Positions 1 to 56,099 of a DNA stretch of 64,000 nt are shown here, in pieces. Made by a program: the position numbers and the translations under genes. Within the stretch, counting starts at the first letter, position 1. Each line of letters opens with the position of its first letter. The DNA lies in NCBI GenBank assembly GCA_018287875.1, contig JAGVVL010000027.1:1488001-1552000 (forward strand). Direction: 5' to 3'. The notes beneath the pieces are model-generated. The model was not told the origin of the DNA, did not search any database, and saw only the letters and a program-made list of their open reading frames with translations. The DNA comes from Nigrospora sphaerica. Lineage: Eukaryota; Ascomycota; Sordariomycetes; Amphisphaeriales; Apiosporaceae.

Positions 1-3000
1 GGGGGATATCTTCTGGATGGACAGGTCCGCGAGAGAAGACGACGCCGCCAGCTCTTCGGAGGTAAGCAAGAACTTGATCGACGCCTGCTCGATGATCAAG
101 TTGAGACGGCTGACGGGATGCTGGGGATCCAGCGCCACAAAAGCTGCGCCAGCCTGGAGAATGGCGAGCATCATCACCGGCACCCATTTCGATTTCGTGT
201 GGCTCAGCGCCACGAAATCCTGCTGGGGCCCAGCGCCGACCCCCAAACTGCGCAGGTGGTGGGCGAGGCCGCTTGAAAGCGCCGTCAGCTCGGCGTAGGT
301 CAGATCCCCATCCCACGCACTCACGGCGGGGGCATCTGGTTGGGATTTCGCAAAGGCGCCAATGATGTCGTGCACCGCTGTCTGCGTGGGCGCCTGGTGG
401 CCCAGCGCGTTCCAATGGCGAATGAGCGACACGTCGGCGGGCCCGGCCAGATCCAGCCCAGATACCGGGGTATAGGGGGACTTGAGCAGCAGGGACGCAA
501 TGTGGCCGAGCTGGGTCAACATGCGGCGCAGCGACTCGGTGTCGACAACGCTCGAGTCGAACGTGGACGACAGGCGGAGCTGTTCCTTGCCGACGTGGAC
601 CTCGACGGCGAGGGGATAGGTCAAGGAGGCCGGAGATTCGGCAGACTTTGGGTGTCTGACCTCGTGGAAAAGCCGCGCACACTCGGCGCTTTCTTCGCTC
701 CATTCAGGCTGCACAACGAAGAGACTCAGGAACTGGCATGCAGCTTTGGCCGACTCGCTCAACTTGGAAATGGCCCGCAGCCCGACTTGCTCAAACGGGA
801 TCATCTCGGTCGCTTGGTGCTGCGCCCGCGCGAGAACCTCCTGGACCGTCATATCCTCCTCCCAGCGCAGGCGCAGCGGCACCGTCACGATGGTGGGGCC
901 CATCATGGCCTCAATCATGGGCACCGGAGCGTTGCGGCCACTGAGCGTGGTTCCGAAGACGACGTCGTGGGACCCGGTGTAGGCACCGATAAGGAGGGCA
1001 TACGCCGTGCGCAGGAGGGTGGAAATCGTGATCCCTTCGGCCGCCTGGGTTTTCCACGGGATGACAATCTCCTCGGCTCCATCGGCTGTGTACTCGGAGA
1101 CGGGAAAGTTCAGCGCCGGGGGGAACTGCGAGGCACCGGCGCCGTCCAGGTACGACTTCCAGAAGTGGTTCGCCGCCGCAGTGTCCAGCTGTTGCACGTA
1201 CTGGATGAATCGGTTGAAGGCCGGCGTCCTGGGGGCGAAGAGGTGGTTGTAAGCCTTCGTCACCGCCTCTTTGATGAGCGGCATCGAGCAACCGTCGTAA
1301 AGGGCGTGGTGGATGGTCCACACGAAGTAGGCATCAGCGTGCGGGTCCGCCGAGCTGATGAGTCCGTAGCGCGTCAGAGCGGTGCCGAGGTCCATCTTGC
1401 GCTGTTCGTCCTCGGCGAGGTAGGCATCCAGAGACGAAGCCGTCCGCCACTCGAGGGCCGCATCGGTTCTTAGCACGGCTTGCATGGTACCGTACGCCTC
1501 AAGGTGGACCAAGCGCGTGCGAAGAACGGCGTTCGCGTCCATGACGTGCTCCCAAGCCCGCTTGAAGCGCTCCGTGTTCACGCCCCGGAGGCGGAAGACG
1601 TCGCGGACGATGTAGCTTCCCTCCTCCTTAACCGACAACGAGACCAGCCCTTGCTGCAGGGCAGTGGCTGGGTAAAGGTCCTGGATCGCCTCCAGTGGCA
1701 CTTTGCACTCGTTGGCCGCCTCCTGGTGGACCAGGGCGTCGAACGCGGTCACGAGCGAAAAGGGGGCGATGGCCGCGCCGACCTCGGTTTCCACGCCCTC
1801 AACGCCCGCACACAAGTCCGCAAGCACAGGCGACTTGAAAATTTGGGCCACGGTGATGACCAGCCCAGCCGACCGCGCCGCCGTGACGAGCTTCATGGCG
1901 GAGATGGAATCGCCACCAAGCTGGAAGAAGTTATCTTGAATGCCAACACTCGACACGTCCACCTGAAGCACCGCCGCCCAGGCCGACTGCATGGCTCTCT
2001 GTCTGTCGTCTTGCGGGGCTGTCTTCTCCTCACTGCCCGTAAGCTTGTTCCGCGCACTGCGGAGAATTTCGAGACACTTGTAGGGAATCTGGGAGGCCCG
2101 ACGTTTGAGCGTCAGCCGATCCGTTTTTCCCGAGGGCGTGAGAGGCACAGCGTCAATAGGGATGAAGAGGGCTGGAACCATGTACTTGGGGACGGAACGG
2201 GCCAGATGCGGCAGTACGATGTTTGATATCTCCTCAAGGCGGGAGACTAACGCCTGACTGATGCTGCCAGTCGCGAGATCGAATTCGAAGCCTTCACACA
2301 CGACAAACGTGGCGAGTGTGGGCACCAAGTCACCATCGGCGCGCTGCGGCTGCAGATGCACAATCTCAGACCGCACGGTGCTCTCCGGCAAGCTGCCGGA
2401 AACATGGAAATCGACTTCGCCGAGCTCGATTCTTTGGCCGCGCAGTTTGACTTGCGTATCCTTGCGCCCGAGATAGATGAAAGAGCCGTCGGGCAGTTGC
2501 CGTACCAAATCACCTGTTTTATAGAAGCGACGGTGTGTGCTTGGGACCGCCGCGTCTTCTGGATCGTACAGCTGAGTCTTGGCGGTCCAGGCAGGGTCCA
2601 GAATGAAGGAGGCATTTGTGCGCTCCGGGTCATTCATGTAGCCAATCGCAAGACTGGGGCTCTCGATCAGCAGCTCTCCCGGGCTGCCGGCGGTAACGAG
2701 CTGATCGGAATCATCCTCTCGCACCACCCAAGCTCGGCAGCCGGTGGCATAGCCGATGATGCCTCCGTGCCGCAAGTCTGGATTGGTGACGCAGACGACG
2801 GTACATTCGGTCGGCCCGTAGCCGTTCTGAAGTCTGCGGTGGCCAGCCCACCGGCTGATGTCGGACTCGGTGACCTGCTCGGCGATGAAGATGATGCTCC
2901 GTATAGTCGGCAGCAGCGCGGGCTCGAGCAGGGCCAGGACGGATGGCGTCAACATCACCGTGTTAATCTTCATATTGTTGAGGGAGTCGGTGAGGTGGTT

Positions 3001-6000
3001 GAGCCGCTGGTCCTCCGAGGGGATGCAGATACAGCCCCCCGTCGCCAGGGTGGTGAAGATCTCGAAGATGCTGGCGTCAAAGGTGAGCGAGGCGAACTGC
3101 AGCGTGCGGCTGGTCTCGTCGACGCCGAAGGCAGCGCCGTGCGACACGATGCTGGAAGCGGCCGCCCGGTGGCTGATCATGACGCCCTTGGGCGTGCCGG
3201 TGCTGCCCGAGGTGAAGATGATGTATGCCAGGTCCTCGGGGCGTGCGGCGTCGCCGACGTCGAGAAGCGCATTGCTGCTGGAAAGCTGGCTACCAGCGAT
3301 ATTCCCCTCGCCGGCGACCAGGTTGGTGGTGCACGCGACCGTGGGCGTGTCCTTGGTCAACTTGGTCAGCCGCGGCGCCAGATCTTCCGAGGTTAGCAGG
3401 ATACGGCCCTTGGACAGCTGCATGACAGCCAACAGTCGGTCGTCCGGCTGAGAGGGATCCAGGGCCACAAAGGCCGACCCAGCTTTGAGGATGGCCAGCG
3501 CCGACACGATGGCCCACAGGGACTTGTCGAAGCAGAGAAGAACGACCTCTCCACGGCCCGAGACGCCGAGGCTCCGGAGCCGGCCGGCCACCTGCGACGC
3601 CGCTACCTCTAGCTCCGCGTACGTCATGTCGCCATCCCAGGCGTGAACGGCCTGACGGTCGCCGTGGCCCAAGGCGGCCTCGGTGAACAGGCCTTGCATC
3701 GTCTTGTCCACCACATTGATGCGGCCCTTGTTCCACTGGCAGAGTCGTCTGTAATCGTACGGGCTGACCAGCTCCAGATCTTGCAGGGTCCGGTGTCGTA
3801 GGGACGCATTCGAGAGCTGCAATACCAAGTACTTGAACTGCTCCATCATGGCACCGACAAGCGGGGTCTCCAAGAGCTTGCCGTCGTAGCGCATGCGGAC
3901 GCGCACCGCGTCGTGGGCCTCGTCCAAGGTACACTCGACCAGGAGCGGCTGGGTGGTCGTTTCCTCGAAACTGTCCTTGGCCTTGTCGAACGGCTGCATC
4001 ATGAGGGCCACTTCCTCGTTCTCGTCGTCGTCCGGCTGGACGACAAAGAGGGTCCCGAACTGGCAGGAGGTGCGGGCGTCTGCGCTAACGCGCGCGATGT
4101 TCTGGAGGCCAAACTGCTCGTAGGGCACCATCCGGGCCGTCTCCTCCTGCAGGTCCCGGAGCCAATCGCCGACCCGCCGCGGCTTGGAGGCGTCCCAGCG
4201 CACCCGGAACGGAACCGTGGCGATGGTCGGGCCCAGCATGTCCTCGATGCCGGGGACCGGGGCCGTGCGGCCACTGACCGTCGTCCCGAACAACACGTCG
4301 CTGTCGCCCGTGTAGCTGCGTGTGAGCAACGCCCACGCGGCACGCAGTGTTGTCGTCGCCGTGATACCCTGGATGGGCTTAGGCGACATATCGACGGTGT
4401 CGCGCAAGACAGCGTTTGGATGCGCGGCCACGGCGACGGGACAGCTCGGAAAGATGGCAGGAGAGCCCTCCAGGTAGGAATGCCAGTAGTTCTCGGTAGC
4501 ATTGCGGTCCAGACCCAGCAGATACTTGTTGAACTGGTTGAAACCCGGTGCAGCAATGGGCCCAAGGGTGGCTCCGTGGTACACCTTGGCTACTCTCTGC
4601 AGAACCAGCGGTAGCGTCCAACCGTCGTAGAGGCAGTGATGGGCAGTCCAGACGAAAAAGAACCTTTCGTAGTTGGGGATGATGGCGAAGCGACTAAGCG
4701 GGTCGCCGAACCCGAGCGTCCGCTCACTGTCGTGATCAAGGTAGTGACGCAAGTCGATGCTAGTCTCCCAGGAGGGCTGCTTGCCCACGACGGCTTGAAG
4801 CATCTGGGAGCCCACCGCTACGATTCTCGTCCTCAAAATGGGATGGGCCTCGCCAACGATCTCCCACGCGCGGTGGAAATCGGCCATGCGGATGTCTTTG
4901 GCCAGCACCATGACCTCCCGCATGACGTAGGACCCGGGTTGCTTCGCCGACAACGAAATTAATCCCTCCTGAAGAGCCGTGCAAGGATACAAGTCCTCGA
5001 TATCATCGGGGCGGACGGCGCATTGCACTGCGGCCTCCCGGATCAGCGTTTCCTTGTCCGACCCGATGAGGGAGAAGGGGTCGACGGCCCCCGTAAGACC
5101 ACCGTCTTCTGTCACTGGGGTAATCTGGGCCGCAAGTTGCCTGAGCACCGAGTGGAGGACCACGTCTGCCACGGAGCACTGTAGACTCTGTTGTCGCAGC
5201 GCCGTCACCACCTTCATGGCCGAAAGGGAGTCGCCGCCGATACGCAGGAAGTCGTCGTCCAGGCCGATCTCAGCCGGGGCGATTTGGAGCGCTTTGGCCC
5301 ATGCGGCTTGCACCTTTCGCTCGATTTCCGACTCGGGCTGCTTTTTAGCGCCATCAAGGCCTTGCAGCGAGGTGATTTCCTCGTTCGTCAAGGCCTCGGC
5401 GAGCGCTCGCAGCTTGCGGCGGTCCGTCTTGGCCGAAATGGTTAACGGCATCTTGGAGATGGGAACGTACATCGATGGGAGCATGTAGGACGGAAGCGAG
5501 CGAGAGAGTACCTCGGCAGTTTGGGCGCGCAGGGCGGACAACTGCTGGACGCCCTCTTCATCCAACCGCACGGTGGTCTGCTCCGAGTCGGCGTCGGGCT
5601 TGGGCAACACGACGAAAGCAACCACCGCCGGGGACTTGTTGCTCCCCGACCGGAGTGACGGTACCTCGACGGCGACCCGGTGGTCCGGCAGAGCGCGACT
5701 GAGCTGGTGTTCGACCTCGCCCAACTCCACACGCTGGCCGCGAATCTTGACCTGGGAGTCTTTGCGGCCCACGTACATAACGGCACCGTCTTCGAGGTAG
5801 TGCACAATGTCGCCCGTCCGGTAGAATCTGCGGTCGGAAGGCCCCCCGCGGGCCCAGGCCGGATCGACGATGAAGAAGGCCGCGGTGCGCTCATGATCAT
5901 TGAGGTAACCACGCGCCAGACCCGGGCCTTCGATAAGGAGCTCGCCAGGTGCGCCAACGGGGACCAGCTTGTTGTAGTCCTCAGGGTGGACGATCCACAG

Positions 6001-7707
6001 ATTGCATCCGACGCCGAAGCCGATGGGCGGGTCGCCGTCGCGGCGGTGGCGCATATCGACCAGCGTTGACGTGACGGAGGCTTCCGTACATCCGTACGAA
6101 TTGAACAGATCGACACTGGTGGGCCAGCGCCGGACATCGCTACCATGGGACCGGTCGCCACCCAGAATGATGGTCCGCAAAGTTGGGACTTGCTCCGGAT
6201 CAAGCAGAGAGAGAACCTTAGGGTTGAGCTCGGCCCAGTTGGTCTTGGTTCTCTGGATTTCGCCACTGAGGTCGTTCATTCGCGCCCATTCGGACGGGAT
6301 GTGCAGTGTCGCGCCCGCGAACAAGGTGCAGAACGTTTCCTCCAGGCTGGTGTCAAAGCTGTAGGACGCAAACTGCAGTGCGTGGCAATCGGGCCCCATG
6401 TTACTATCTCTTCCAAACTCATACATGGACGAGCAGAAGGCCCAGTGCTCGGTGATGCAGCCCTTCGGTACGCCCGTGGAGCCCGAGGTGAAGATGACGT
6501 ACATGGCATCCTCTGGACTGCCCGTCTCTAGTCGTGCCGGGGGAAGAGGCAGGTCGTTGACCAACTCGTCGCACGTAACGAGAGTCTCCACGCAGTCCCG
6601 CGGAAACCGCTCCTTGGTAGAGCGGGCCACGACAGCGACGCGGGCTTTGAGCTGCCCTACGATCATGACCTTCCTCTCACTGGGATGTGAAGGTTCAATG
6701 ACAGCAAAGGCGCCGCCGGCTTTGAGCACGCCCAACATGGCTACTACGGCCCAGATGGACTTTTCAAAGCAGATCGGCACGAGTGTTTCTTCCCTAACGC
6801 CCAGGTGATGGAGGCGGAAGGCCAGGCGCTCGGAAACTTCATCCAGCTGGGCATAAGTCATCTGCCCATCCCAGGAAGATAGGGCAATATGGCTCGGACG
6901 CAATTTGGCTTGTCGGTGGAAAAGCGCATGAGCCGTTTCTCTCACCACTGTTGGTTTCTTGGCGTTCCATTGGCTGATCTGGCGTTGGTCCGCCTCGGTC
7001 AGGAGCGCCAGGTAGGAGATGGGCTGGGCAGGGTCCTCCATCATCAGAGTCACGCATCGTTCCAGCACGGCAACCACGCGCAGTAGCAGGTCTTCATTGA
7101 GAAGGGCCCGGGAAAATGAAGCCTTAATGCGCAGTTCTGCATCCGATACCTCGAAATCGATGCAAAGAGGCACGGAAGTCTTGTCGCTTGTGTTGCCGAC
7201 CCCTGAATCACCCTTTCGGAGCCCACACGATGGTTTCCGGTGTGCGTTGACGACGCACGTGAAGCCACAGGCGGCTTGAAAATCGGCACAGGCTTCCGCC
7301 AATTGCGCGACACTGGCGTCTCCCAAGGCCATGTCCCGGGTGTTTTGCTCGACCGCGGCAATGAGCGCCGAGACGGTCATGTCCGGGGTCCATTTGATGC
7401 GCACAGGTACGTTGGGCCCGGCGGCACCAGCTGCACTTGGGCTCCGTAAACGTGTGCCGAAGAGCACATCACTGGAGCCCGAGTAGATGCCAGCCACCAG
7501 AGCCCAGGCAACATGAAAAAATGCAGCTTCATCCAGCGAGCTGCTGGGATCCCAGGACCAACGGAGCTTCTGTATGACGACACCGTCGAGTTGGATATCA
7601 TCCAGTTGTGAGCCAACAGACGGGAAGAATGAAAGATTTGCGCCGTCAAGATACAGGGACCACCAAGTCGGCGACCCGCTGGTCGGATGTGAGGCATCGG
7701 AATCCAT
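1..7707 (-). CDS. Multimodular nonribosomal peptide synthetase, N-terminal part (runs off left edge)
   Basis: One uninterrupted frame reads from the ATG at 7707 to the window edge: 2,569 residues, no intron. Domain order: a truncated condensation domain (residues 1-255, only its second half, without HHxxxDG); A1 (core YVIFTSGSTG near residue 400); T1 (GGDSLSAM near 823); C2 (HHCLYDG near 1022); A2 (YIIFTSGSTG near 1493); T2 (GGDSISAM near 1930); C3 (HHALYDG near 2131); A3 beginning near 2430 and cut. By alignment with the GrsA pocket I read specificity lines DTEEIGSVTK for A1 and DAFMIIGVVK for A2; I do not recognise a substrate for either. A1 core A5 reads NSYGCTE instead of the usual YGPTE. 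No epimerase or methyltransferase domain is visible. NRPSs load amino acids as adenylates, hold them on phosphopantetheine and condense them. Neighbouring precursor-supply genes suggest one A domain takes a chain-elongated amino acid. The total module number is unknown. Confidence 0.97.
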   Translation of the reverse strand, partial: MDSDASHPTSGSPTWWSLYLDGANLSFFPSVGSQLDDIQLDGVVIQKLRWSWDPSSSLDEAAFFHVAWALVAGIYSGSSDVLFGTRLRSPSAAGAAGPNVPVRIKWTPDMTVSALIAAVEQNTRDMALGDASVAQLAEACADFQAACGFTCVVNAHRKPSCGLRKGDSGVGNTSDKTSVPLCIDFEVSDAELRIKASFSRALLNEDLLLRVVAVLERCVTLMMEDPAQPISYLALLTEADQRQISQWNAKKPTVVRETAHALFHRQAKLRPSHIALSSWDGQMTYAQLDEVSERLAFRLHHLGVREETLVPICFEKSIWAVVAMLGVLKAGGAFAVIEPSHPSERKVMIVGQLKARVAVVARSTKERFPRDCVETLVTCDELVNDLPLPPARLETGSPEDAMYVIFTSGSTGVPKGCITEHWAFCSSMYEFGRDSNMGPDCHALQFASYSFDTSLEETFCTLFAGATLHIPSEWARMNDLSGEIQRTKTNWAELNPKVLSLLDPEQVPTLRTIILGGDRSHGSDVRRWPTSVDLFNSYGCTEASVTSTLVDMRHRRDGDPPIGFGVGCNLWIVHPEDYNKLVPVGAPGELLIEGPGLARGYLNDHERTAAFFIVDPAWARGGPSDRRFYRTGDIVHYLEDGAVMYVGRKDSQVKIRGQRVELGEVEHQLSRALPDHRVAVEVPSLRSGSNKSPAVVAFVVLPKPDADSEQTTVRLDEEGVQQLSALRAQTAEVLSRSLPSYMLPSMYVPISKMPLTISAKTDRRKLRALAEALTNEEITSLQGLDGAKKQPESEIERKVQAAWAKALQIAPAEIGLDDDFLRIGGDSLSAMKVVTALRQQSLQCSVADVVLHSVLRQLAAQITPVTEDGGLTGAVDPFSLIGSDKETLIREAAVQCAVRPDDIEDLYPCTALQEGLISLSAKQPGSYVMREVMVLAKDIRMADFHRAWEIVGEAHPILRTRIVAVGSQMLQAVVGKQPSWETSIDLRHYLDHDSERTLGFGDPLSRFAIIPNYERFFFVWTAHHCLYDGWTLPLVLQRVAKVYHGATLGPIAAPGFNQFNKYLLGLDRNATENYWHSYLEGSPAIFPSCPVAVAAHPNAVLRDTVDMSPKPIQGITATTTLRAAWALLTRSYTGDSDVLFGTTVSGRTAPVPGIEDMLGPTIATVPFRVRWDASKPRRVGDWLRDLQEETARMVPYEQFGLQNIARVSADARTSCQFGTLFVVQPDDDENEEVALMMQPFDKAKDSFEETTTQPLLVECTLDEAHDAVRVRMRYDGKLLETPLVGAMMEQFKYLVLQLSNASLRHRTLQDLELVSPYDYRRLCQWNKGRINVVDKTMQGLFTEAALGHGDRQAVHAWDGDMTYAELEVAASQVAGRLRSLGVSGRGEVVLLCFDKSLWAIVSALAILKAGSAFVALDPSQPDDRLLAVMQLSKGRILLTSEDLAPRLTKLTKDTPTVACTTNLVAGEGNIAGSQLSSSNALLDVGDAARPEDLAYIIFTSGSTGTPKGVMISHRAAASSIVSHGAAFGVDETSRTLQFASLTFDASIFEIFTTLATGGCICIPSEDQRLNHLTDSLNNMKINTVMLTPSVLALLEPALLPTIRSIIFIAEQVTESDISRWAGHRRLQNGYGPTECTVVCVTNPDLRHGGIIGYATGCRAWVVREDDSDQLVTAGSPGELLIESPSLAIGYMNDPERTNASFILDPAWTAKTQLYDPEDAAVPSTHRRFYKTGDLVRQLPDGSFIYLGRKDTQVKLRGQRIELGEVDFHVSGSLPESTVRSEIVHLQPQRADGDLVPTLATFVVCEGFEFDLATGSISQALVSRLEEISNIVLPHLARSVPKYMVPALFIPIDAVPLTPSGKTDRLTLKRRASQIPYKCLEILRSARNKLTGSEEKTAPQDDRQRAMQSAWAAVLQVDVSSVGIQDNFFQLGGDSISAMKLVTAARSAGLVITVAQIFKSPVLADLCAGVEGVETEVGAAIAPFSLVTAFDALVHQEAANECKVPLEAIQDLYPATALQQGLVSLSVKEEGSYIVRDVFRLRGVNTERFKRAWEHVMDANAVLRTRLVHLEAYGTMQAVLRTDAALEWRTASSLDAYLAEDEQRKMDLGTALTRYGLISSADPHADAYFVWTIHHALYDGCSMPLIKEAVTKAYNHLFAPRTPAFNRFIQYVQQLDTAAANHFWKSYLDGAGASQFPPALNFPVSEYTADGAEEIVIPWKTQAAEGITISTLLRTAYALLIGAYTGSHDVVFGTTLSGRNAPVPMIEAMMGPTIVTVPLRLRWEEDMTVQEVLARAQHQATEMIPFEQVGLRAISKLSESAKAACQFLSLFVVQPEWSEESAECARLFHEVRHPKSAESPASLTYPLAVEVHVGKEQLRLSSTFDSSVVDTESLRRMLTQLGHIASLLLKSPYTPVSGLDLAGPADVSLIRHWNALGHQAPTQTAVHDIIGAFAKSQPDAPAVSAWDGDLTYAELTALSSGLAHHLRSLGVGAGPQQDFVALSHTKSKWVPVMMLAILQAGAAFVALDPQHPVSRLNLIIEQASIKFLLTSEELAASSSLADLSIQKISP

Positions 7708-9879
7708 GGTTGAGGTTTGGAGTGCGGATGGCGGGTGAGAAATGAAGTTGTAACGGGGTATCAATACGCAAGAGGAAACTGCTGGTGACTGCAGCTCAGC
7801 TAGATGCATCCAGGACAACAATGAGCGCGAAGAAGACGTCGCGGGATATTTGCACGCAGATCTGATATATCATTCATGCTGTCTCTTGAAAGCTGGGGTT
7901 GTGTGACAGAGGCTGCTGCTGGCTGTCACTAAACGTGGAGTATGGAGTCCAGCAGTTTCTAGCGAGAACTCTAATCATCATGTCATTTCGGAGCCTATGT
8001 TATCGATCCTCCATGCCTCATGTGTAGGACGATGGCTAGAATGATGGTCAGCAAGCCGCGTATCCACACTACGGAAGCAACGGGAGCCATTGCTTGGCGC
8101 GGCAAGTTTAAGGGTCGACCTTCCCCCCCCTCTTTTTACCCTTGTGCGGCCCGCGGCTCCCAAGGACCCATGCATCCCTGATTTGTTAGCTGGCCCAACG
8201 AAGACTTGGCTACCAAAACGGGGGTGGAAGAGGTGGAGAAGGAGCAGGGCAAATTACATCCCATATGATGTACATGCATCCTCGCATGGTTAGTACAACG
8301 GCTGAGGCTCCACCCCCTCCCTGCTCCATGCGAACGGGGCCTCCATTGCTGCAGTGTCCGACCCATGGATCCCTGTACAGTTGTGACCTTGCAGGAGACA
8401 AGCTGCTAGTGTGTTCCCGTGTCATAGAATCCGGGGGGGGGTGGAACGACCCTACGACGCCAATACCCCCCAAAAAAGTCGGTGGAGACAAGTACTGGGC
8501 CCACCCTGTTTTTACTTGTGGATGTACATATTTTGCATAAGATAAGCCTATGCTCTCTATCCTCCCTCGTAGACACAAGCCCACTTGTAGCTCGTGGGCC
8601 CACCCGAACTCACTCCCATATATTTGAACGTCCTACAGCAAATTACACGAGTAACATATCCCTACAGGCCCGAAAAATGCGCATTTTAGCGTGAAGTTTA
8701 ATTTGACCAATTACTGTCCGTGTTACTTATATCTTTTAAAAGCTATTGAAAGATATCTTAGAGGTGAAGTGTTAAATAACTTATATAAACAATAATAAAA
8801 TCAAAATTTTTAACGATTAGTATTAAGCTATAGTCTGAGTAAGAAATATCATTTAAAACAAAGTTACAAGCTTAAACGCAGAATAAATACATTTATATTA
8901 ATTTATTAAAACAACTTCTTTAACAGTAAATATACCTTGTTTTTATAAACTTAATTTTATATAATGTCATTTTACGTTATTATACTTTTATGTATAATTA
9001 TGTATAAAACGCTTGAGATTTTCATATTCTATAACTAACACTCAAGATACGTTAAGTGCTTTACTTCACAGCATTAACTACAATATATCTCTGCTTATAT
9101 AAAAGAAATTAATAAATATTTGATTTTTTCTTTTTCTTTCCTGTTTTCAAAGTTATATATACTTACGTTTTTATACTATAATCTTTCAAGCTTCAGCTTT
9201 TCACTAACTCCATTTTTATCACCATCTAAATATGTTTTTATTTGTATTGATAAATTTTTCTTTCTTATAAGTCTTGAATTTCTTTTAGTTTATAATACTA
9301 AATTTCGCTGTATGTGATGTAACGGAAACTTTTATCCAGTCACTACATTGCAACACTAAATCTACAAGCCTCAAGCTATGTATATTCCCCTTAAATTCTT
9401 TGTGTTCATATGTGATGGCCGTACTGGAGGGTAGTCCTGAAATAGAGAATTCCTAGTTGCTCGTGAATGAAAAGCCACGGTACTGTCTTACATTGCCCTG
9501 TTACGTAGACGCGAAGCTGGGGAGTATGAATGTACCTATCGCCGCGCGTCATTTTTCGCTTCGGGCCCACTAAATATATATCAGTAAGCGCATCCCCATC
9601 GGCTTTAGGGGGGATGCCAAGGCCCGGCCAACCCGGCCGTGTGAGTTTCATGCCGTTCCCCCCGTGGCAAACCGTTCGTCGCGCATGGTTGATAATCAAA
9701 CTCGGTACTCTCCGTACTAAGTCATATAAAGCTAATGCAACGTGTCGCCCACACCCTCTCTTTTCTATGTCACTATTTGATAAGGTCTCTGACCTAATTC
9801 CTGAAGTATCATCAAGAACCAGTACCAGACAGTCTTGGTCTTCCTGCTACTGTGCTTTGGGCCCGCAAGTCACCAAAAA
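7708..9879. other. Divergent intergenic region between NRPS and MFS genes, with A+T-rich island
   Basis: No convincing gene. The stretch 7708-8690 has ordinary base composition and must hold the NRPS promoter. About 8690-9350 is strongly A+T-rich with many stop codons in all frames, which looks like old repeat-induced-point-mutated DNA. 9350-9879 returns to mixed composition and would hold the transporter promoter. Short open frames here show no family signature. Confidence 0.7.
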
Positions 9880-11844
9880 ATGGACAATGCCGGTCAAGCT
9901 GATGGCAGCAGCGTCAGTATGCGCCAGAGAGCGAAGCTCTGTTTTGGTTTAACTATTTCCGATTGGTTCGTATGTATCACACTGTCTTTGACTGTTGCAC
10001 TCATCGGCATGGTATGTGGCCCATCCTTAAGATTGCCTTCCTTCATCTCCGCCCTTCTCCCAATCCGAAGACACTCAAGTGAGGTCGTCCAACCGTTCGC
10101 CTAGCTGATAGGGTGCGTCCACTAGGACATGACGATCGTCAGTATCGCTATTCCGAGCATCACAACTCAGCTTGGCAGTCTGAGTGACGTTGGATGGTAT
10201 GGGTCCGCATAGTAAGTACACTGCTTCCTAGCAATCATGAGAGCGGAAGCCATTTGGCCTGTTTCGGATCCAAGAAATGCTGACAGGTTTTGGATAGCTT
10301 CCTTGCCGCCGCTGCCTCACAGCTTGCTTTCGGAGCGCTGAACCGTGTTGTACCCCACAAATACGTATTTCTTGCCGGCGTTGTACTGTTCGAATTCGGT
10401 TGCCTCCTTACCGGCCTTGCGACTTCCTCTGTCATGGCTATCATAGGTCGAGCCTTCACCGGTCTGGGTTCTTCCGGGGTTGTATCTACGGCCGTCGTGT
10501 AAGTGGTCCTCCCTGGGCTCTTCTGCACGAAAGTCTCCCTTTTCGACCGCTGATTGACTCTGAACCCCAGCATTATCACACAGATTGTGCCACCGCCGCA
10601 TCTTCCCTTCCTAATTGGAGCCCTGGGCTCCTTGGAATTGCTCGGACAGATCCTCGGCCCTCTGGTCGGCGGCGCCATCACGGACCACATCAGTTGGCGC
10701 TGGTGCTTCTTGATTAACGTGCCGTTCGGCTTTTTATCCGGCATCGCCGCATTTTTCTGCTTGAGGACATACCGAACTGAGCCATGGGCAGAAACACTGA
10801 AGGGGCTCAAAAAGCTCGATGCTATTGGCATCGCCATCTTACTTCCTGCTATTATAGCTGTCCTGTACGTGATCCAATCTGGAGGCAACTCCATTGAATG
10901 GAACAGTTCAGAGGCGGTGGGTACCTTGATGGGCGGCCTCGTACTCTTCATTATCCTCTACTTTCGTGAGAAACGCAGGGGTGACGACGCTGTCTTACCG
11001 CTCAGGCTCTTTAAGGACCGGAGTATTCTTTTCGGGGCAGCATTTGCCTTTAGTGCGAACATGTCCGTGTCTCTTTTCGATTACTTTGTAAGTGGATTCT
11101 TTAGCCTTGGCGAAGGGGGTTGTTTATGCTAACGATATTGGACTTCAGGTTCCATTTTGGAACCAGGCTATCAGGGGCCTCTCCGCCGAGCGTGCTGGTA
11201 TTTTGCTTTTGCCCCTCAACGCGTGTTCCGCATTTTCCGTCGTGGCTGCCGGTGCTATTTCAAATTTTCTCCGGCGGCCCAACCCGGTGATGATCTGCGG
11301 TGGTGCTCTCACCATAGCAGCGGCCATTCTCTTCAGTACAATCGACATAAACGCCACGGATAGCAAGATCTTGGGTTACTCGGCGCTGGCAGGATTTTCT
11401 GCCATGGCAACGCAGCAACCGCTCGTTGTTGCGCATAGTGCAGTCGACAAGTTTTTATCCCCGGCCGCCATCTCTCTGATGCTATTCAGCTCCATGTCGG
11501 GAGGTGCTTTAGGCCTTGCCGTGGCTCAAGCCATTTTCGTCAACGAACTCCAAGACAACTTGGCCCAAGTTCCCGGTGTGAACGCGGATGCCATCATCGC
11601 TAGTGGCGCCACCGAAGTCCGGAGTGTCGTGAACCCAGCCTTACTTGGGGAGGTTCTTCGGTTGTACAACCTTTCTCTAGTACAAGTGTTCTTTGTACCG
11701 GTGGGAGCCGCCTGCCTCATGCTAATTTCAGGTTGCCTCGTCAGCTGGAAGAAGTCGAACCTCGAGCACGGTAGCGAAAACACCTTGAGCGGAGAATCCG
11801 TGACTGAGGTGCCTGAGAACACGGACGAAGAAAAAGCCCATTGA
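9880..11844 (+). CDS. MFS multidrug exporter (DHA2-like, 14-TMS type)
   Basis: Five exons: 9880-10011, 10126-10211, 10298-10498, 10571-11087, 11149-11844. They join without phase errors to 543 residues, the usual size of fungal 14-TMS drug:H+ antiporters. Exon 2 encodes the family signature DMTIVSIAIPSI followed by DVGWYGSAY. Exons 3 and 4 carry further membrane helices with the GQILGPLVGGAI motif and the SWRWCFLINVPFG loop. The charged C-terminal tail is cytosolic. All introns have GT..AG ends; intron 4 has a GCTAAC branch site. Such pumps sit in the plasma membrane and are common in NRPS clusters, where they export the product or protect the producer. It is divergent from the NRPS, so it is inferred to serve that peptide. 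Substrate cannot be read from sequence. Confidence 0.95.
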
Positions 11845-23974: not shown

Positions 23975-25316
23975 ATGGGTTCCTTGCAACAGACGACCGA
24001 GTATGGCGATGTACGAGAGCCGAACTACAGCGTGGACTGGCAGAGCGTGGGATTTACACCCTATCCTGGTACACCCATCTCTTTCTCTCTCCCCCTTCCC
24101 AGCGTCCACGCTTCCGGTCACGGAGGGCCGTGATGCCGTGAACGGAGACGCGTGCTAACCGAGTGCTCGTGCGGTGTGTAGTAAACGGCCGCGTCCAGAG
24201 CACCTTTACCACGGGTACCGGGTGCTGGAGCCCGCCAGAATGGGTCACGAACCCCATGGTGCAGATCCACGGCCTGGCGCCGGCGCTCAACTACGGGCAG
24301 CAGGCGTTCGAGGGCCTGCGCGTGTTCCGGAACGAAAATGGCGCGATCCAGCTCTTCCGGCTAGCGATGCATTCGGCACGGTTTTCGCGCTCGGCGGCGG
24401 CGGTAGGAATCCCGCCGCTGCCGGCGGAATTGTTTGAGCAGGCGGTACGGCTAGCCGTCTATCTTAACAGCGAGTTCGTGCCGCCGTTTGCGAGCGAGAG
24501 CTGCTCCATGTACATCCGGCCTATCGTGTTTGCAAGCAGCCCTACTATGAACCTACAGGCGGCCGACGCCTACACTATGACGATCTTGGTAACGCCCGTA
24601 GCCACGCTATATAAGCCCGTCGGCCTTAAGGCCCTCGTGGTCGAGGGCTTCGACCGTACAGCACCGCGCGGCACCGGTAGCTTCAAGATTGGCGGCAACT
24701 ACGGCCCAACCCTGCGTGTTATGCAGCAAGCCCGCCAGCGCGGCTTCGCCCTTACCCTACACCTAGACTCGCAGACTAACTCGCTTATACACGAGTTCTC
24801 AGCTAGCGGCTTTGTTGCCCTTAAGACGCGGCCGGGGCCCTCGGGCTTGATCCGCACCCTCGTCTTACCTAAGGACGAACATATTCTGCCCAGCATCACT
24901 GTGGACAGCGTCGCCACTATTGCCGAGTCTCTGGGCTGGGAAGTCGAGCGTCGAGAAGTATGTACCAGAAAAGCCCCCCCTAGCCCCCTTTTCTTCCATA
25001 CCTCAGCCCTTCTCTCACTCACACTCGCTCACAGATTCCTGTCGGCGACCTCGCTACCTTCACCGAGGTCTACACCGTAGGCACCGCGTCGTCCCTTGTC
25101 CCGGTCAACACCATCGTCCACGAATCTACGGGCAAGCAGTTCGACTTCCATGTGGACCCTGCGTCGCCCGAGGCTGCATTCAACATCTTGAATACACAGC
25201 TTCACAACATCAAGCGGGGCATTGATCCCGAGCCTTGGGGATGGGTGGAGGAGTTGAAGGCGGAAAAGGTTCTGTCCGACGTTCAGAGGATGCTGGCGTC
25301 CCAGAAGCGTGTATGA
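23975..25316 (+). CDS. Branched-chain-type aminotransferase (fold-type IV PLP enzyme; HtyB/TOXF-like)
   Basis: Three exons: 23975-24068, 24182-24957, 25035-25316, giving 383 residues. Intron 1 has a GCTAAC branch site. The protein has IHGLAPALNYGQQAFEGLR (substrate pocket of fold-type IV aminotransferases), the PLP lysine in GSFKIGGNYGP, the loop SLIHEFSASGF that corresponds to the glutamate-bearing EE/EF loop, and a C-terminal TVGTASSLVPV segment binding the cofactor phosphate. The reaction is reversible transfer of an amino group between glutamate and a 2-oxo acid. The lack of an N-terminal mitochondrial extension suggests a cytosolic protein. Head-to-head with the dehydrogenase and tail-to-tail with the isomerase, it would convert the elongated 2-oxo acid to the amino acid used by the NRPS. 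It belongs to the same family as HtyB and the HC-toxin cluster protein TOXF. Confidence 0.94.
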
Positions 25317-27037: not shown

Positions 27038-30000
27038 TCACCACGCCATTACGGCGGTCGCCTTGGGCACTGCTGCCGCTTTGGGAACCCTGGCCGTGGC
27101 CACAGCGCCTCCTCCCGTCAAGACGTTGTAAATTCGCTTTCCAAATTTGGAGAAGGCATTCGTCATGCCGCCGATTTCCGTCAGTCGCTTCTCTAGAGGC
27201 GACAGCGCAAAGGAGAATTCCTCGCCGCCAATACGCAGGATGTTGTGGCCCAGGTCGATCTCAATGGCAGCACCCGTCTCGGCCAGCTCGTAAAAGCGCT
27301 CGTCGGTGACGGTGAAGCCCAGGAGTCCCAGCGACGGCATGTTGCGGGCGAAGATGAAGGCAAAGCTCTTCGCAATTATGCATTTGGCACCGACACCTAG
27401 ACGAGCAGGTACTTAGTACAACTTTCTTGCCTTGGAAGAGAAGGTCGTTGGGGTGAAGGACAGCAGAGGCATAAAAGGACCGACGCCGTGAGATAAGGTT
27501 TTCTCTGGGAGAGACTTACCGAGCAAAGCCTGAACAGCTTCCTGGCGACTTGATCCGCAACCAAACGCCTTCCCGCCTACAACAACTTCGTGACCAGCTT
27601 TGACGGCGTCGCGGAAACTGGGATCATTCCTTTCCATGCAGTGTGTGCCGAGCTCTTCGTTGTTCTTGGACGTGAGCAGGAATTGAGCCGGCGCAAGCTA
27701 TCGTGGGGGTGAAACAGTCAGCCTCAGGCGGGAGACAACGTAACGGCCCTACGGGAAGGGGGGAGGGCACTGTAGCCCCGGGGATTTTGAGCCTCCGGGA
27801 CCAAGCCTAGCGGGCTACGCTTATGCTTACCGCGTCCGTATCGACAAAGTCACCCATGCGGTACACCTTGCTCTTGATGGTGGCCAAGGCTGAGCTCTCG
27901 GCGCCCGACGGAGCATTCGTGGCGCCGCTGCTCGAAGCAGCATCTGCGGCACCGCCTGTGGTCGCGTCGGCCTCGAGGACACTGTCCCGTCCAGGCGGTT
28001 CGACCCACATGGGCTCCTCGAGGGCACCGGTAGGCAGTGAACCTTTTCCTTTGACGCTAAACCATCTGTCTTCGGGAATGAGGTCGATCAACTCGTGTGG
28101 CGACCTGACCGTCATTTCAAACGAAGACGCTGCCACGGTAGCAGCCGAGGCCAAGGAACCAATCGCGCCTAAAGGGAGGGGTACAATTATTAGCAGGAAC
28201 TTGACGACTCCGTTTACCGAGGAGAGCGGTCGGTGGCAGAAAAAGCGCCATAATCACCTACCCTTGCCCATGCGGTTCTCAAAGTTGCGGTTCTGACTGC
28301 TCAGCCATACTGAGTCGGGCGCGGCCATATCTGCGCCCATTCCGACGCAGTACGAGCAGCCGGGAATGCCAATAGTGAAGCCGGCGCGCTCGTAAATATC
28401 GGCTAGGCCCGTCTTCCTTAGGTGCTCCTCGATAGGCCGACTACCGGGCACTACATGGCGCTTACCATGGCCGACAGGCTTGAGTCCGGCGTTTAAGCCG
28501 GCTTGGAGAACTAGGGCCCCTACCACTAAGTCCTCCTCGGCTGTGGTGCAAGCGCCGATGAAGACGCCGTCTAGCTTGGTCCCCGCAACCTCGGTTATAG
28601 GCACGACGTCGTCCGGGTTGGGATACCGCGCTACGAACGGCTCGGCCTTAGATAGGTCGATTTCGTATGATTCGGCATAAGGACATCCTTCGTCGGGCTT
28701 GAAGTAGTACGACGCCTTCTTATAGTGGGCAGTCTTACGAGACTCGATGAAGTGCTTTGTGACCGTATCGGCCACGAAGATTCCCGTGATGCCACCGAAT
28801 TCCTAACCAGGTAACATTAGACTATGCTAGGCAAATATCCCACGTCGTCTCCGGAGGGGGGAGAGAGGGGGAAGGGGATTCGTTACCACCTACCGTAGTC
28901 ATGTTAGCAACGGCGAAGCGCGCATCCGAGCTGAGCCATCGGCAACCGGGTCCTGTGTACTCGACCACCCTATCGGCCGCGACTGTATTCCGTTTCAGCT
29001 GTTGTAGGATATATAGGATAACATCCTTTCCACCAACGCCTCGAGCCGGTTTACCGGTGAGACGGATCTCAATGACCTCGGGCACCTTGAACCAGATCTG
29101 GCCTGTTACTAAAGCCATTGTCACCTCGGTCGCACCGAGACCGATAGATAGACAGCCGTTAGCGCCAGAGCTACAAGTATGCGAGTCGGAGCCGATAATG
29201 ATCTGGCCAGGCTGCGCACGCTCGCGATAAAACTCGGTATGCATGATAGTATAGTTACTGCCCTGGAATTGTGTCATTTTGAACTTCTTACGCGCAAAGT
29301 CCATTTCGCGTTCCAGGCTCTGAACTAAGGGCGTGTCGGCTAGCCGCGGGTCGACAACATGGTCACCAGCCAGCCAGAAACGGTCGTTTCGGAAAACGCC
29401 GGGGTCGCCGAGCTTATTATACGCTTGGAGCATGCCCTGTTCCAGTTTTCGTTCGTTTAGAACGTGCTTTAAAGTAAACACGGCTGGGAGATCGCAAGGA
29501 GAGAGGGAGATGGCAGGGCTAGGGGGGCGACTTACATGCCAGCTAGCTTCGCTCGCCATCACCCAGTCCACCGAAATACTGATAATATCGCCAGTCTTCA
29601 CGTAACCAGCACGGGAAAGATCGTGAAAAGCAAAAATCTTCTCCGTCACATTCATAGGCGGACGGCCAGCGGGGACCGCACGAAGTGGGGCGCTAATAGC
29701 TCCATCGTATCGCTCGGACGAGTTCAGCGACTCGAGCCCTAGGGTGGGATGGAATTAATTAGCTTGGATGCTCCTCTACGGGATAGTCTGAGGAACTGGC
29801 CGGAGAAACACAACTGGCCACAAGGTTAAGAGAGGACGGGAGGTATGCGTACATGCAGAGGTTAGAAGAAGCAATTCGTCGGCTTGCTCGGCTGTGACCT
29901 CGTCGGTCCACGATAAGGCCATGCCGCCCAGGTTGGTGGGCGCCGTGGCGATACTCAGCGTCGTCTGGATAGCATCGCTTTCTTTCTCGTGTCCATTGCG

Positions 30001-30159
30001 GCGCAAATAAGCATTGAGAGCGGAACAGATGGTAAGTGGGTGGAGGGACGGCTGCTCTTCGCTGGCTTGAATCGCCGCCCACGCGTCGCCGCCAAGTTGT
30101 ACGCCACGAATCGTCCACAAAAGCTGGCCCAGACGGGCGTGGAGGGGTTGGGAGGCCAT
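27038..30159 (-). CDS. Aconitase-family isomerase, single-chain isopropylmalate isomerase-like (LEU1/HtyD type)
   Basis: Seven minus-strand exons join in phase to 822 residues: 30159-29853, 29738-29536, 29436-28894, 28802-28262, 28168-27831, 27697-27520, 27396-27038. The LeuC-like part has [23 protein letters not shown] and [11 protein letters not shown]; the Cys of GACTT and the two of GCSYC are the expected 4Fe-4S ligands. [11 protein letters not shown] follows, then a linker and the LeuD-like swivel domain with VDTDA and [15 protein letters not shown] (substrate-binding loop). The first ~170 residues precede the usual [13 protein letters not shown] start and have no domain I recognise. The family isomerises 2-alkylmalates to 3-alkylmalates by dehydration and rehydration. 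Inferred job: step two of chain elongation, as HtyD. An earlier ATG in the same frame at 30303 is possible but lies in sequence without homology. Confidence 0.94.
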
Positions 30160-31275
30160 GGGGGAAAATGAAGCCCTGAGTACTGTGTTCAAAGATGGGG
30201 AGGTATGCAGGGCCAGGGCAACGGATTGATTGGCATATCCCTCTTTTAAGCGGTTGTAACGCTCTACATGCGTAAACGGCGCCGTGTTACAGAACACGCC
30301 CACGCATCTTGCATAAACCAGGCTTAGTCAAGCTCTGCAGGTATGAAGCTTACAGATCTGCATCGGATGACCGCTAAGGGGACGCTGCAGTCATGGGCAT
30401 AGGTTCCAGGGTCAATCAAGGTTCGTGACCCAGGCGTGGGGTTCCGACTTGTTGAAGTTCGCGCCACCAATAAGTGGCCCATGTCATGACTGAGCACTGT
30501 CCATGGACGCGTACACAGTACATGAAGCTCCCCACAATGCTTTTGTACTTGTGACCACGCATAAGTGGACCTGTACTTCCATGCAGCAGCCTTCCATATA
30601 TGTTCGAGTCTACGATTCATTTTCTGGATTCGGTTGTACAAAGGACCCCTTCAAAAATTCTTGTCGCTGGTCCGTGGCACTCTGTTGCCTTGCCAGTCGG
30701 CAGCACCACCATCATGAGGCTGGTGCCAGGGCTTCAGATAAATGTTGTGCTTTAGGAACACAGGGTCTTCAGGGACCGGTAAGGTTGGATTGATATGCGA
30801 GAAGTAATACTTCAGAAGGAAGGAGGGGCAGTTTTCGAAGTGGGAGGCAGAGCCCCTTTGATACGTGAAGTCCCTAGTCAATATGCGTATCACCCTACCT
30901 GTCCCAAATCCCTCTTATTGGCCATAACTACCCAAGGCTCTCCTTTATAGAGGCCTTTGTCTTGTAGGTGCCTGTTTCCTTTGTCTCGTATTCTCTGCAT
31001 TATCCCTTTTTTCCTAACACCAGGTGCTCCCATCACCTTCGAGGTCCTGCTCTGACTTCCCCAATCTGTCCTGCTTTGTCGTATCTTGTCATGCCGTAAC
31101 AAACTTTTGATTATATAAGTATTTGTAAGAGTACGATTTCAGACTGCACGTGTTATGTCGGACCTGTAAACATGGCACCTAGGCAATACAATCGCATTAG
31201 AGAGGGTATGGTATGCTGGTGGTACAAGTTATCATTTATAGGGCAACAAAGGAAACTACTGCCAGTCAAGGCGAC
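30160..31275. other. Intergenic region upstream of the isomerase gene
   Basis: About 1.1 kb with no recognised gene, repeat or transposon. The proximal part must contain the isomerase promoter. Confidence 0.5.
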
Positions 31276-35839: not shown

Positions 35840-36030
35840 CGCGTTTCCCGGTCACCGAAGTTGCCCGAGGTTCCGAACGTCTCGGGAATCCCAATTCCGA
35901 TGAAAATTATCCGATTCCGTCGAAGTGGCGCAGCCCTTGTGCATAAGCTCAGCTAGCGCTAGCTCGCTTTTGCGCTAGTTTGGGTGAAGAAATCAATACT
36001 TTGAAGTCACGGCGCCTAGGCGGCTTTATT
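35840..36030. repeat. Dispersed repeat copy B
   Basis: Diverged partner of the sequence at 25.92-26.14 kb. Relative to that copy, the best-matching stretch (35979-35998) carries G-to-A changes. No coding signal. Confidence 0.4.
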
Positions 36031-36886
36031 TTATTTCAATTGTACCATAGAAGCACGCGGCAGGCTTCTAGGATCGCAGGGCTGTTATTATAGTCAATTG
36101 CTTAGCGCACTATGAGGAAGATCATTTGCTAAAAGGATAATAACGTAGAGTATTGAGGTCTCAATAAGGAATCTGCTACTGCTGTAACGGCTGGCACCAT
36201 GGACCTTGGTGTGATAGCTCGTAACACGTGGCAGCAGTGCCACGCTAAGTCGTCGGAAGCAAAAATCCCATGTCGTAATGAAGGTTCGGGAGCCCCCGTC
36301 CCTGTTTTGCCGGCGTCAAGTAAGCTTCGTATAACCTTCTGCGGATGCTGGGCAGGGAACAGACCTGCATCTCCGAACCGGGGACGGACTTTTTTTTGAC
36401 CCGGAACACTTCCCCTTCTTACCCCTGAGGTTTAGGGGCCCGCTCACTCGTAGTGGATTTAGGAATGGTCTGGTTCTACCACACTGAGTAACAAGGATAC
36501 AATAGATGTCTCTTTGACTAACCGAGGAAGGTATCTCCTTCGCCTCAAAAACAGTAATTTTTAACGCAGACCCAAAATACATGGCCTAGCATGAATGGAA
36601 CCTCTAATCACAGGCTCTTATTACCATCCTATAAGTATTCGAGTGTGGCGTAAAGTACTCCTCAGCCTCCGAAGCTTATTTGTGGTGTGCTACTCTATTA
36701 CATTAAGGTTCAACAAAATATCACTGTTGTCAAGACCAAGAAGGCAGGAATGGTTCGCAAAGAGCCTCCTGGCTTACCGATGTATTATAATTTCAATCAG
36801 GTCACTAGAGCCACTTAGAGACTTGAACCCATACACTGCTGTTTAAACTTCTTGGCCACCCGGTGGCTATTCGCTGAGTTTACATC

Positions 36887-38064
36887 ATGACTTTAGATTC
36901 AAGCCAAATCCAGCCTTTATTGCATGCCGCGTCGGTTGATGCAATAGAAAGACGCCGCTTACGAAACCGGCTAGCCAAGCGCAAGTCCCGTACGTGTCAA
37001 CCTCCCCTCCCCCAGGTCATCCAGAATGTATCCCAGGTATGGTAGACCGTTAACAGTACATGGCGGCAATGAAATGCAGGCGCTGAATCGAAGAAGCGGC
37101 TGGCAGATCAGGCAGATGCCTGCGAACCAGCCACGGCTGTAATGGATATTCATACGACCACTGCCGGAACCTCGAGCGCAACGCCGAAGGCCGAAGAGCC
37201 CCGCTCAAAGGACACTTGTTTGGCCCTTCGCTACAACCAAACATCGTCACTTCCGGCACAACAACACATGGACAGCAACATGAGCACATGGGACTGCCCA
37301 CAGTTGCCAGATTGCAACCGTACCCACGACGAAACACTGGCCGGCTTCTATCATTTACAAGCACCCGAGAAACTAATGCCGAGCCCCGAATCCGATACCA
37401 CCGCAGTCCATACCACCATTTCTGGCCAAGAAGACATGCTTGGATGGTTTGGCGACGATTCAATACCATGGAACGTGAGTTCTGACCCATTCAGAAGACC
37501 CATACAGCAGACAATGCCGACGCCAGGGCAAAGAATGTATCCACCCTCCTCACTTCTCCGCTGTCTTTCCTTTTAATCCCGCGTTGCTCACACATTGGTG
37601 CACTATGTCTTGTATCCTAAACCATTCTCTTTCCTCAGCATCCCGGATCCCCGACTCGGAGTTTCTATCATTCCTTTCCCAACTGCCACGGTTCCTCCCA
37701 TTGCCTCTGTCACCACTCTTTCTATCGACCATGATATGTTGCTCACCGCTTAAAGGACAACACAATGCCAAAACAGGCCACTCCGCTGCATATCGCTGCC
37801 GCGCGTGGACACCTGAGCACAATTAAGCTTTTAATCAAGTACGGGGCTGACGTCAACGCTGTCGACGAGGCTATGCTTACACCTTTGCACCACGCTGCAA
37901 ACCACCGCCAAACTGCCGTGCTCTGCTTCCTGTTAGAGCACGGTGCTAATGTAAATTGCACCGACTCTGACGGCCGTACATTGTTATACAGGGCGGCAGA
38001 AGAAGGGAACGATGAGTTAGTGGAAACGATGTTAAGATACGGCGCAAGTATGAATGGTTCATAA
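36887..38064 (+). CDS. bZIP-basic-region plus ankyrin transcription regulator (TOXE/bANK type), possibly frameshifted
   Basis: Exon 1 (36887-36989) and exon 2 (from 37080) join in phase to make the bZIP basic region RRRLRNRLAKRKSRAESKKR with no clear leucine zipper after it. A Ser/Thr/Pro-rich middle follows. The last frame (37765-38064) has three ankyrin repeats (TPLHIAAARGH, TPLHHAANHR, TLLYRAAEEG) and a stop. A basic region fused to ankyrin repeats is the architecture of TOXE, the HC-toxin cluster regulator. Exon 2 probably ends at GTGAGT (37475) or at a weak site near 37537, and the next exon starts at 37639 after a pyrimidine-rich acceptor. The linker frame there (IPDPRLGVSIIPFP..DHDMLLTA) runs into a stop at about 37750, one base out of register with the ankyrin frame, so a single-base deletion or sequencing error is suspected. 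Inferred role: pathway-specific activator of the cluster. Confidence 0.8.
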
Positions 38065-56079: not shown

Positions 56080-56099
56080 CTCGCAATATTCCAGACGCC

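What the first reader, a model, noticed from the sequence alone, without database searches (positions are those of the whole stretch)
1..38064. NRPS cluster carrying its own complete chain-elongation pathway and a bANK-type regulator
Seen: within 38 kb lie an NRPS, exporter, P450, and one each of isopropylmalate synthase-, isomerase-, dehydrogenase- and branched-chain-aminotransferase-like genes, plus a basic-region/ankyrin regulator. Known: HtyA-D in echinocandin clusters use this enzyme set to make homotyrosine; TOXE (bANK) controls the HC-toxin cluster, which also holds a BCAT-like gene (TOXF). Inference: the cluster makes a 'homo' amino acid and builds it into a peptide. The NRPS start (truncated C, two complete A-T modules with unrecognised A-domain codes) and the bANK regulator make it look different from the echinocandin type, so the product may be new.
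Basis: partly seen in the sequence, partly recalled or inferred. Interest (0 to 1): 0.9.

Follow-up and report, generated by a model that had tools for sequence, protein, structure and literature searches.

The report
Peptide gene cluster with chain-lengthening cassette
A fungal gene cluster pairs a three-module peptide-making enzyme with its own set of leucine-pathway-like enzymes, altered at the same active-site positions as the plant enzymes that lengthen amino acids for mustard-oil compounds, so it probably builds an unusual lengthened amino acid into a small peptide; a second copy of the set sits elsewhere in the genome without a peptide synthetase.

Summary
Window 1-38,061 (plus 3.3 kb to its left) carries a three-module NRPS, MFS exporter, P450, IPMS-, isomerase-, IPMDH- and BCAT-like genes and a basic-region/ankyrin (bANK) regulator. 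They are not the housekeeping leucine genes: LEU4, LEU2 and other BCATs and LEU1 lie elsewhere. The cluster IPMS belongs to its own clade, whose substrate pocket differs from LEU4 at four of the five positions that separate plant MAM synthase from IPMS (H167C, S216G, N250V, P252A: 27-28 of 28 rows, against 0 of 94 LEU4-type rows). The cluster IPMDH has lost the second leucine of its substrate-contact pair. So the set most likely lengthens a hydrophobic 2-oxo acid for the NRPS. Six NRPS relatives keep the same A-domain pockets, so a conserved peptide core is likely; its identity is unknown. Contig C7 holds a second copy of the four enzymes plus a bANK gene, with no NRPS found but an ATP-grasp ligase and an AsnRS/asparagine-synthetase-like gene: a portable module. 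Closest known: echinocandin and AM-toxin clusters. New variant of a known kind.

The parts
1..7707 (-). NRPS, first part: truncated C, A1-T1, C2-A2-T2, C3, start of A3; continues 3.3 kb left of the window (rest of A3, T3, C4 and a carrier-like domain without its serine)
9805..11841 (+). MFS exporter (several exons; start approximate)
   Evidence: Pfam MFS_1 and TRI12 on 10,554-11,132; MFS_1 below its cut-off on 11,092-11,844
12555..14378 (-). IPMS-like synthase with altered substrate pocket (open frame; exon ends not fixed)
16985..18813 (+). cytochrome P450 (exon ends approximate)
   Evidence: Pfam p450 on 18,223-18,816; earlier exons by frame only
21506..23078 (-). IPMDH-like dehydrogenase; second Leu of the substrate-contact pair is Gly (exon ends approximate)
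23879..25313 (+). branched-chain-aminotransferase-like gene (exon ends approximate)
27041..30327 (-). isomerase of the aconitase/IPM isomerase family, large- and small-subunit parts, with an N-terminal stretch (29,779-30,327) of no known family that is also present in the C7 copy
36878..38061 (+). bANK-type regulator: basic region then ankyrin repeats
   Evidence: ankyrin Pfam hits on 37,735-38,061; basic region by eye, like the one on C7

Best explanation
A specialised-metabolite cluster. The cluster synthase condenses a hydrophobic 2-oxo acid, larger than the 2-oxoisovalerate used by LEU4, with acetyl-CoA; the cluster isomerase and dehydrogenase turn the product into the 2-oxo acid one carbon longer (possibly in more than one round); the cluster aminotransferase makes it an amino acid; module 2 or 3 of the three-module NRPS builds it into a tripeptide whose first residue is probably basic (Lys/Orn-like), and the terminal C domain releases the peptide. 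P450, MFS protein and bANK regulator would tailor, export and switch on. Shown: gene content, a separate leucine pathway, monophyly of the altered synthase clade, changed pocket residues, purifying selection between the two copies, conserved A-domain pockets. Inferred: substrate, incorporation, order, release mode, regulation. Commitment on substrate: aliphatic (Leu-, Ile- or Met-derived) slightly more likely than aromatic, because Leu143 is kept.
For: Separate housekeeping genes: LEU4 on C5 (38-39% to the cluster IPMS), LEU2 on C1 (61%), BCATs (44%, 39%); LEU1 on C12, leuC 786 and leuD 260 bits, over cut-off. Pocket of the IPMS clade (26 database hits plus C18 and C7): C152 28 of 28, G202 27 of 28, V236 27 of 28, A238 27 of 28, S240 28 of 28; the LEU4-type rows (93 hits plus own LEU4; P0029 left out of both groups) have S, N, P, T in 94 of 94 and H in 92 of 94, at positions of which four are named for plant MAM in PMC8490860 (passages). 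Clade support 100 (SH-aLRT) with pocket columns left out, on 70 of the 123 rows. IPMDH 'LG' for 'LL' in both cluster copies, the position that sets preference in plant IPMDH1 (PMC8468904, passages). dN/dS about 0.04-0.26 between the C18 and C7 copies, from dN and dS. A codes: A1 and A3 identical in 7 of 7 NRPSs, A2 in 6 of 7 with one gapped. IPMS and NRPS two locus tags apart in A. kogelbergensis; in C. tofieldiae both come from a contig of 98,511 bases, presumably the same one.
Against: No product, expression or enzyme data. In Diaporthe batatas NRPS and IPMS are about 225 locus tags apart, and the second A. kogelbergensis NRPS and IPMS lie on contigs of different length. Pyricularia has clade IPMSs but no NRPS among the 120 listed; for C. 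orchidophilum an NRPS is listed but no clade IPMS (capped lists). The C7 cassette stands without a local NRPS, so the cassette's product need not be for this NRPS. One clade member (P0023) has A/A/P at three of the pocket positions. dS is saturated. No regulator box was found. The Lys/Orn reading of A1 rests on recalled codes.
Confidence: 0.74

Rival explanations
1. A rival on the substrate only (it shares the rest with the best explanation): the elongated unit is aromatic (homophenylalanine or homotyrosine type, possibly twice elongated), as in echinocandins and AM-toxin, rather than aliphatic.
For: Both known fungal NRPS clusters with this set elongate a tyrosine-derived acid (PMC7778625; PMC8102738; passages). 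Bacterial HphA has Met where IPMS has Asn and Ala where IPMS has Ser in the side-chain pocket (PMC12961565), as the clade here has Val and Gly.
Against: Leu143 is kept in 26 of 26 clade hits, where HphA has Ala73 (that this table row is the Leu143 position is my reading of it). P0029, my guess at an echinocandin-type enzyme, has Met143 and G/G/G, a different pocket. But HphA A73L still took 4-hydroxyphenylpyruvate, so Leu143 does not exclude an aromatic acid.
Confidence: 0.4
2. The cassette product is not used by this NRPS: two neighbouring pathways share a locus.
For: The cassette exists on C7 without an NRPS (none of the 38 condensation-domain matches is on C7), and in Diaporthe NRPS and IPMS are far apart.
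Against: NRPS and clade IPMS are close neighbours in A. kogelbergensis and seem to share a small contig in C. tofieldiae.
Confidence: 0.13
3. The four enzymes are self-resistance copies of leucine-pathway targets.
For: Duplicated target genes in clusters are a known resistance device (recalled).
Against: All four enzyme types are duplicated, and changes fall in substrate-side-chain positions of two of them; a resistant copy needs only the one target.
Confidence: 0.05
4. These are ordinary leucine-synthesis genes.
For: Families match LEU4/LEU2/BAT by Pfam.
Against: A separate LEU4, LEU1 and LEU2 exist; the cluster IPMS scores 525 bits against the leuA_yeast cut-off of 697 and is outside the LEU4 rows of the tree.
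Confidence: 0.02

Closest known systems
AM-toxin cluster of Alternaria alternata (AMT1, AMT5-AMT8)
   Same: NRPS with three A domains, P450, and aminotransferase-, IPMDH-, IPMS- and aconitase-like genes proposed to lengthen an amino acid (PMC8102738, passages)
   Different: AMT1 is described as ending T3-C4-T4-Ct; here the NRPS ends T3-C4 plus a carrier-like domain without serine. No 2-ketoisovalerate reductase, thioesterase or methyltransferase was among the frames scanned here. A bANK regulator is present here.
Echinocandin clusters (hty genes)
   Same: IPMS, aconitase, IPMDH and transaminase next to an NRPS (PMC7778625, passages)
   Different: Three A domains instead of a six-residue peptide line; no fatty-acyl ligase or dioxygenase found among the frames scanned; different IPMS pocket from P0029, my guess at a representative.
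Plant glucosinolate side-chain elongation (MAM, IPMI, IPMDH1, BCAT)
   Same: Synthase altered at the same pocket positions and IPMDH at the same leucine (PMC8490860, PMC8468904; passages): parallel change of leucine enzymes
   Different: Different replacement residues (H167C, N250V, P252A; Gly in IPMDH); the C-terminal domain is diverged rather than lost; Leu143 unchanged.
bANK regulators ToxE, Aps2/Apf2 and FGM4
   Same: Basic region plus ankyrin repeats in an NRPS cluster (PMC4109984, PMC6389888; passages)
   Different: The known ToxE and Apf2 binding boxes are not enriched here; here the regulator gene is also present with the elongation enzymes at a locus without NRPS.

Membership tests
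LEU4-type 2-isopropylmalate synthase (NCBIfam leuA_yeast) | curated score cut-off 697.4 bits | tested here: not met
   525.4 bits; C7 copy 464.1 from a partial frame, P0003 549.3, P0029 688.9. No own positive control over the cut-off: own LEU4 was scored only in two exon pieces, 351 and 296 bits
LEU4-type 2-isopropylmalate synthase (NCBIfam leuA_yeast) | LeuA_dimer regulatory domain (PF08502) | tested here: not met
   no hit in the cluster protein or in 26 of 26 clade hits (precomputed); present in 92 of the other 94 listed hits, absent in P0039 and P0105. The longer leuA_yeast model still aligns to position 558 of 564, so the domain is diverged rather than gone
MAM-like elongation synthase | changed substrate pocket at positions 143, 167, 216, 250 and 252 with catalytic residues kept | tested here: met
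   four of the five changed, Leu143 kept; catalytic and metal-site residues aligned to MtIPMS kept in the C18 protein. Which residues these are in MtIPMS beyond the pocket is recalled
Echinocandin-type cluster | IPMS, aconitase, IPMDH and transaminase set | tested here: met
Echinocandin-type cluster | NRPS for a six-residue acylated peptide | tested here: not met
   three A domains, no complete starter C domain
AM-toxin-type cluster | NRPS ending T3-C4-T4-Ct | tested here: not met
   ends T3-C4 plus a carrier-like domain with Asn for Ser in 7 of 7
AM-toxin-type cluster | AMT2 reductase, AMT4 thioesterase, AMT9 methyltransferase homologues | tested here: inconclusive
   none among the frames scanned, but not every frame was scanned
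bANK regulator | basic region plus ankyrin repeats | tested here: met
   Ank domains; basic motif by eye only, in both copies, without Pfam support
bANK regulator | Tox-box or Api-box in cluster promoters | tested here: not met
   1 and 1 match in the window against 1.92 and 1.96 expected
Amino-acid homologation activity | enzyme activity on a longer 2-oxo acid | not testable with these tools
   needs enzyme assay

The most novel reading that the evidence does not exclude
A portable unit of four elongation enzymes plus its own bANK regulator was duplicated and plugged into two different bond-forming machines in one genome: an NRPS on C18, and an ATP-grasp ligase with an AsnRS/asparagine-synthetase-like protein on C7. 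Each makes a small peptide with the same or a closely related lengthened amino acid, of which I found no description. The synthase reached its new specificity by changing the same pocket positions as plant MAM synthase.
Probability: 0.35. Interest if true: 0.8.

Novelty: new variant of a known kind. Interest (0 to 1): 0.6.

Why it matters
It points to a further case in fungi, beside echinocandin and AM-toxin, in which leucine enzymes were turned into an amino-acid-lengthening pathway, with changes at the positions known from plants. That makes a clean test of parallel enzyme evolution, offers new biocatalysts for lengthened amino acids, and predicts one conserved peptide core in several genera. 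The NRPS-free twin on C7 is a natural control.

Tried and rejected
Rejected: housekeeping leucine genes. Tried without result: Tox-box and Api-box; a de novo promoter word, where ATGACACG is the most promoter-enriched 8-mer (5 of 6 copies in cluster promoters) but 48 of 150 random shifts give an equal or better word, so it is only a lead; telomere repeats at the ends of C18, none found, so nothing can be said about an accessory chromosome; Rfam and tRNA scans, no hit; literature for a described product, nine searches of a library that lacks most subscription papers, in which no listed title, abstract start or passage read names this cluster. The species was not identified: own LEU4 is only 66-70% like its twelve best relatives among the listed hits (one own exon stretch is missing from that sequence). 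No structure was predicted. Left open: horizontal transfer (cluster IPMS is 77% like the A. kogelbergensis copy while own LEU4 is 66.7% like that of another Apiospora, P0043; the Pyricularia copies sit next to C18 in the tree). Not done: trees of the isomerase, IPMDH and BCAT; comparison with HtyA, AMT7, TOXE or TOXF sequences, which were not at hand.

Full report
What is there. The window is C18:1,488,001-1,552,000 of a 51.6-Mb genome, fungal by its best relatives. The NRPS frame runs from window 7,869 leftwards for 3,731 codons without a stop and ends 3.3 kb beyond the window; a PI-phospholipase C gene follows. To the right lie an MFS transporter, an IPMS-like gene, a P450, an IPMDH-like gene, a BCAT-like gene, an isomerase gene, and a regulator with ankyrin repeats preceded by a basic region read by eye. 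Then come a retroelement, a GH31 gene and a multicopper oxidase, which I take to be outside the cluster. Only chosen open frames were scanned, not every one.

The enzymes are not the housekeeping set. Searching the whole genome by family and comparing with the cluster proteins gives a LEU4 on C5 (38-39% to the cluster IPMS), a LEU2 on C1 (61% to the cluster IPMDH) and other BCATs (44% and 39%, two more at 28% and 25%). NCBIfam scoring identifies LEU1 on C12 (leuC 786 bits, leuD 260 bits, both over cut-off), aconitases on C10 and C16 (over cut-off) and, from one piece and below its cut-off, a homoaconitase on C33; the LEU2 exon scores 335.5 against the leuB cut-off of 353.2. One exon of the cluster isomerase matches the homoaconitate/archaeal-type large-subunit models (121-142 bits) better than leuC (73 bits), so it is probably not a recent LEU1 copy.

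A second set. The same searches showed IPMS, IPMDH, BCAT and isomerase genes within about 25 kb on C7. Fetched and compared, this locus also has an ankyrin regulator with a like basic region. IPMS, IPMDH and BCAT keep order and orientation; the isomerase-bANK part is inverted. Protein identity between the sets is 59% (IPMS), 87% (IPMDH), 71% (BCAT) and 86% (isomerase) over the aligned parts; NG86 dN is 0.08-0.34 and dS 1.3-1.8, so dN/dS is about 0.04-0.26 with dS saturated. No condensation domain was found on C7 (0 of 38 matches; the search scores only the best candidates). C7 has instead an ATP-grasp protein nearest to L-amino-acid ligases and D-Ala ligases and a class II synthetase-like protein: NCBIfam puts it nearer to asparagine synthetase A than to AsnRS (194 versus 114 bits, both below cut-off), but among solved structures AsnRS is the nearest (67 bits against 30-34 for the archaeal asparagine-synthetase type). 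An MFS-like frame is also there (below cut-off).

Specificity. Database relatives of the cluster IPMS form a block of 26 (57-77% identity; Apiospora, Colletotrichum, Pyricularia, Diaporthe and unnamed sources), then a drop to 42-50% (only the 7,999 best candidates were scored and 120 listed). Aligned through MtIPMS (my first index for His167 was off by one and was corrected), the clade has Cys, Gly, Val, Ala, Ser for His167, Ser216, Asn250, Pro252, Thr254 in 28, 27, 27, 27 and 28 of 28 rows, against Ser, Asn, Pro, Thr in 94 of 94 and His in 92 of 94 LEU4-type rows (P0029 was left out of both groups). P0023 is the clade's exception (A/A/P). P0029 of Phlyctema has Cys/Gly/Gly/Gly/Ser; it may be an echinocandin-type enzyme, which I could not test. 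A review names L143I, H167L, S216G, N250G and P252G as the MAM changes (PMC8490860, passages). Dropping eight pocket columns, the clade stays together with SH-aLRT support 100; the tree holds 70 of the 123 rows, is a quick search, is rooted by midpoint only, and P0029 is a long branch. In the IPMDH, own LEU2 reads GLLRLRKE where both cluster copies read SLGVLRRE: the second leucine, said to be phenylalanine in the plant elongation isoform (PMC8468904, passages), is Gly. Only these three own sequences were compared for IPMDH.

NRPS. Six relatives out of the 120 listed, 46-64% identical, were compared with it. They keep all nine pocket positions: A1 DTEEIGSVT and A3 DALAAGGVV in 7 of 7, A2 DAFMIIGVV in 6 of 7, with one gap in P0123. 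Comparing A1 with recalled codes for Lys and Orn suggests a basic residue. By my reading of the frame, only the second half of the first C domain is present; the two Colletotrichum relatives carry extra upstream sequence (a carrier motif in P0125; partial A and a full C motif in P0124, which has four AMP-binding stretches), so the three-module form may have lost a first module. The last C domain keeps a histidine motif; the last carrier-like domain has Asn for Ser in 7 of 7. NRPS and IPMS are two locus tags apart in A. kogelbergensis; in C. tofieldiae both are listed from a contig of 98,511 bases, presumably one contig; in D. batatas both from one of 2,950,914 bases, about 225 tags apart; the second A. 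kogelbergensis pair is on contigs of different length; for Pyricularia no NRPS and for C. orchidophilum no clade IPMS is listed.

Regulator. bANK genes are described as controlling the HC-toxin, apicidin F and F. graminearum octapeptide clusters (PMC4109984, PMC6389888; passages). The two known boxes are not enriched here, and no significant own motif was found. That a bANK gene is present in both copies of the cassette is the better evidence for its role.

Verdict. A real, probably working cluster with a dedicated amino-acid-lengthening set. It works like the echinocandin and AM-toxin systems in that part but meets the definition of neither. The lengthened residue and the peptide remain to be found.

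Noticed in passing
L036-L038 (C7:2,870,700-2,896,000): Second elongation cassette with a bANK gene, beside an ATP-grasp ligase and an AsnRS/asparagine-synthetase-like gene, no NRPS found. The ATP-grasp protein has only three database hits at E<=0.001 among the 7,999 candidates scored: 84% on an 8.4-kb contig, 30% in Fusarium nematophilum, 25% over a short part.
   Followed up: partly
P0004, P0005, P0014-P0016, P0018 (Colletotrichum): The clade IPMS is predicted fused behind a PLP-enzyme part of about 290-380 residues. This may explain why Fgm3 of F. graminearum was described as 75% like an annotated C. gloeosporioides isopropylmalate synthase (PMC6389888); I did not check that it is the same entry. 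The genome here has an unlinked 53% relative of that part on C1.
   Followed up: partly
window:19197-21177: Frames of a repeat family between P450 and IPMDH; one (20,462-20,746) is 33% like a frame on C7, as are frames on the left flank; no Pfam hit in the three scanned; perhaps a transposase remnant inside the cluster.
   Followed up: no
window:29779-30327 and L038:2875-3324: About 110 residues of no known family upstream of the isomerase in both cassettes, 60% alike.
   Followed up: no
window:33201-33530: A 330-base stretch that is 99.7-100% identical to two places on C7 near the second cassette: a recent repeat with a 14-base tandem unit.
   Followed up: no
window:38727-43569 and 54088-56109: LTR-type retroelement (RNase H, integrase zinc-binding and zinc-knuckle hits) directly right of the bANK gene, and a further reverse transcriptase frame.
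   Followed up: no
window:49019-49437: Three copies of a 140-base tandem repeat.
   Followed up: no
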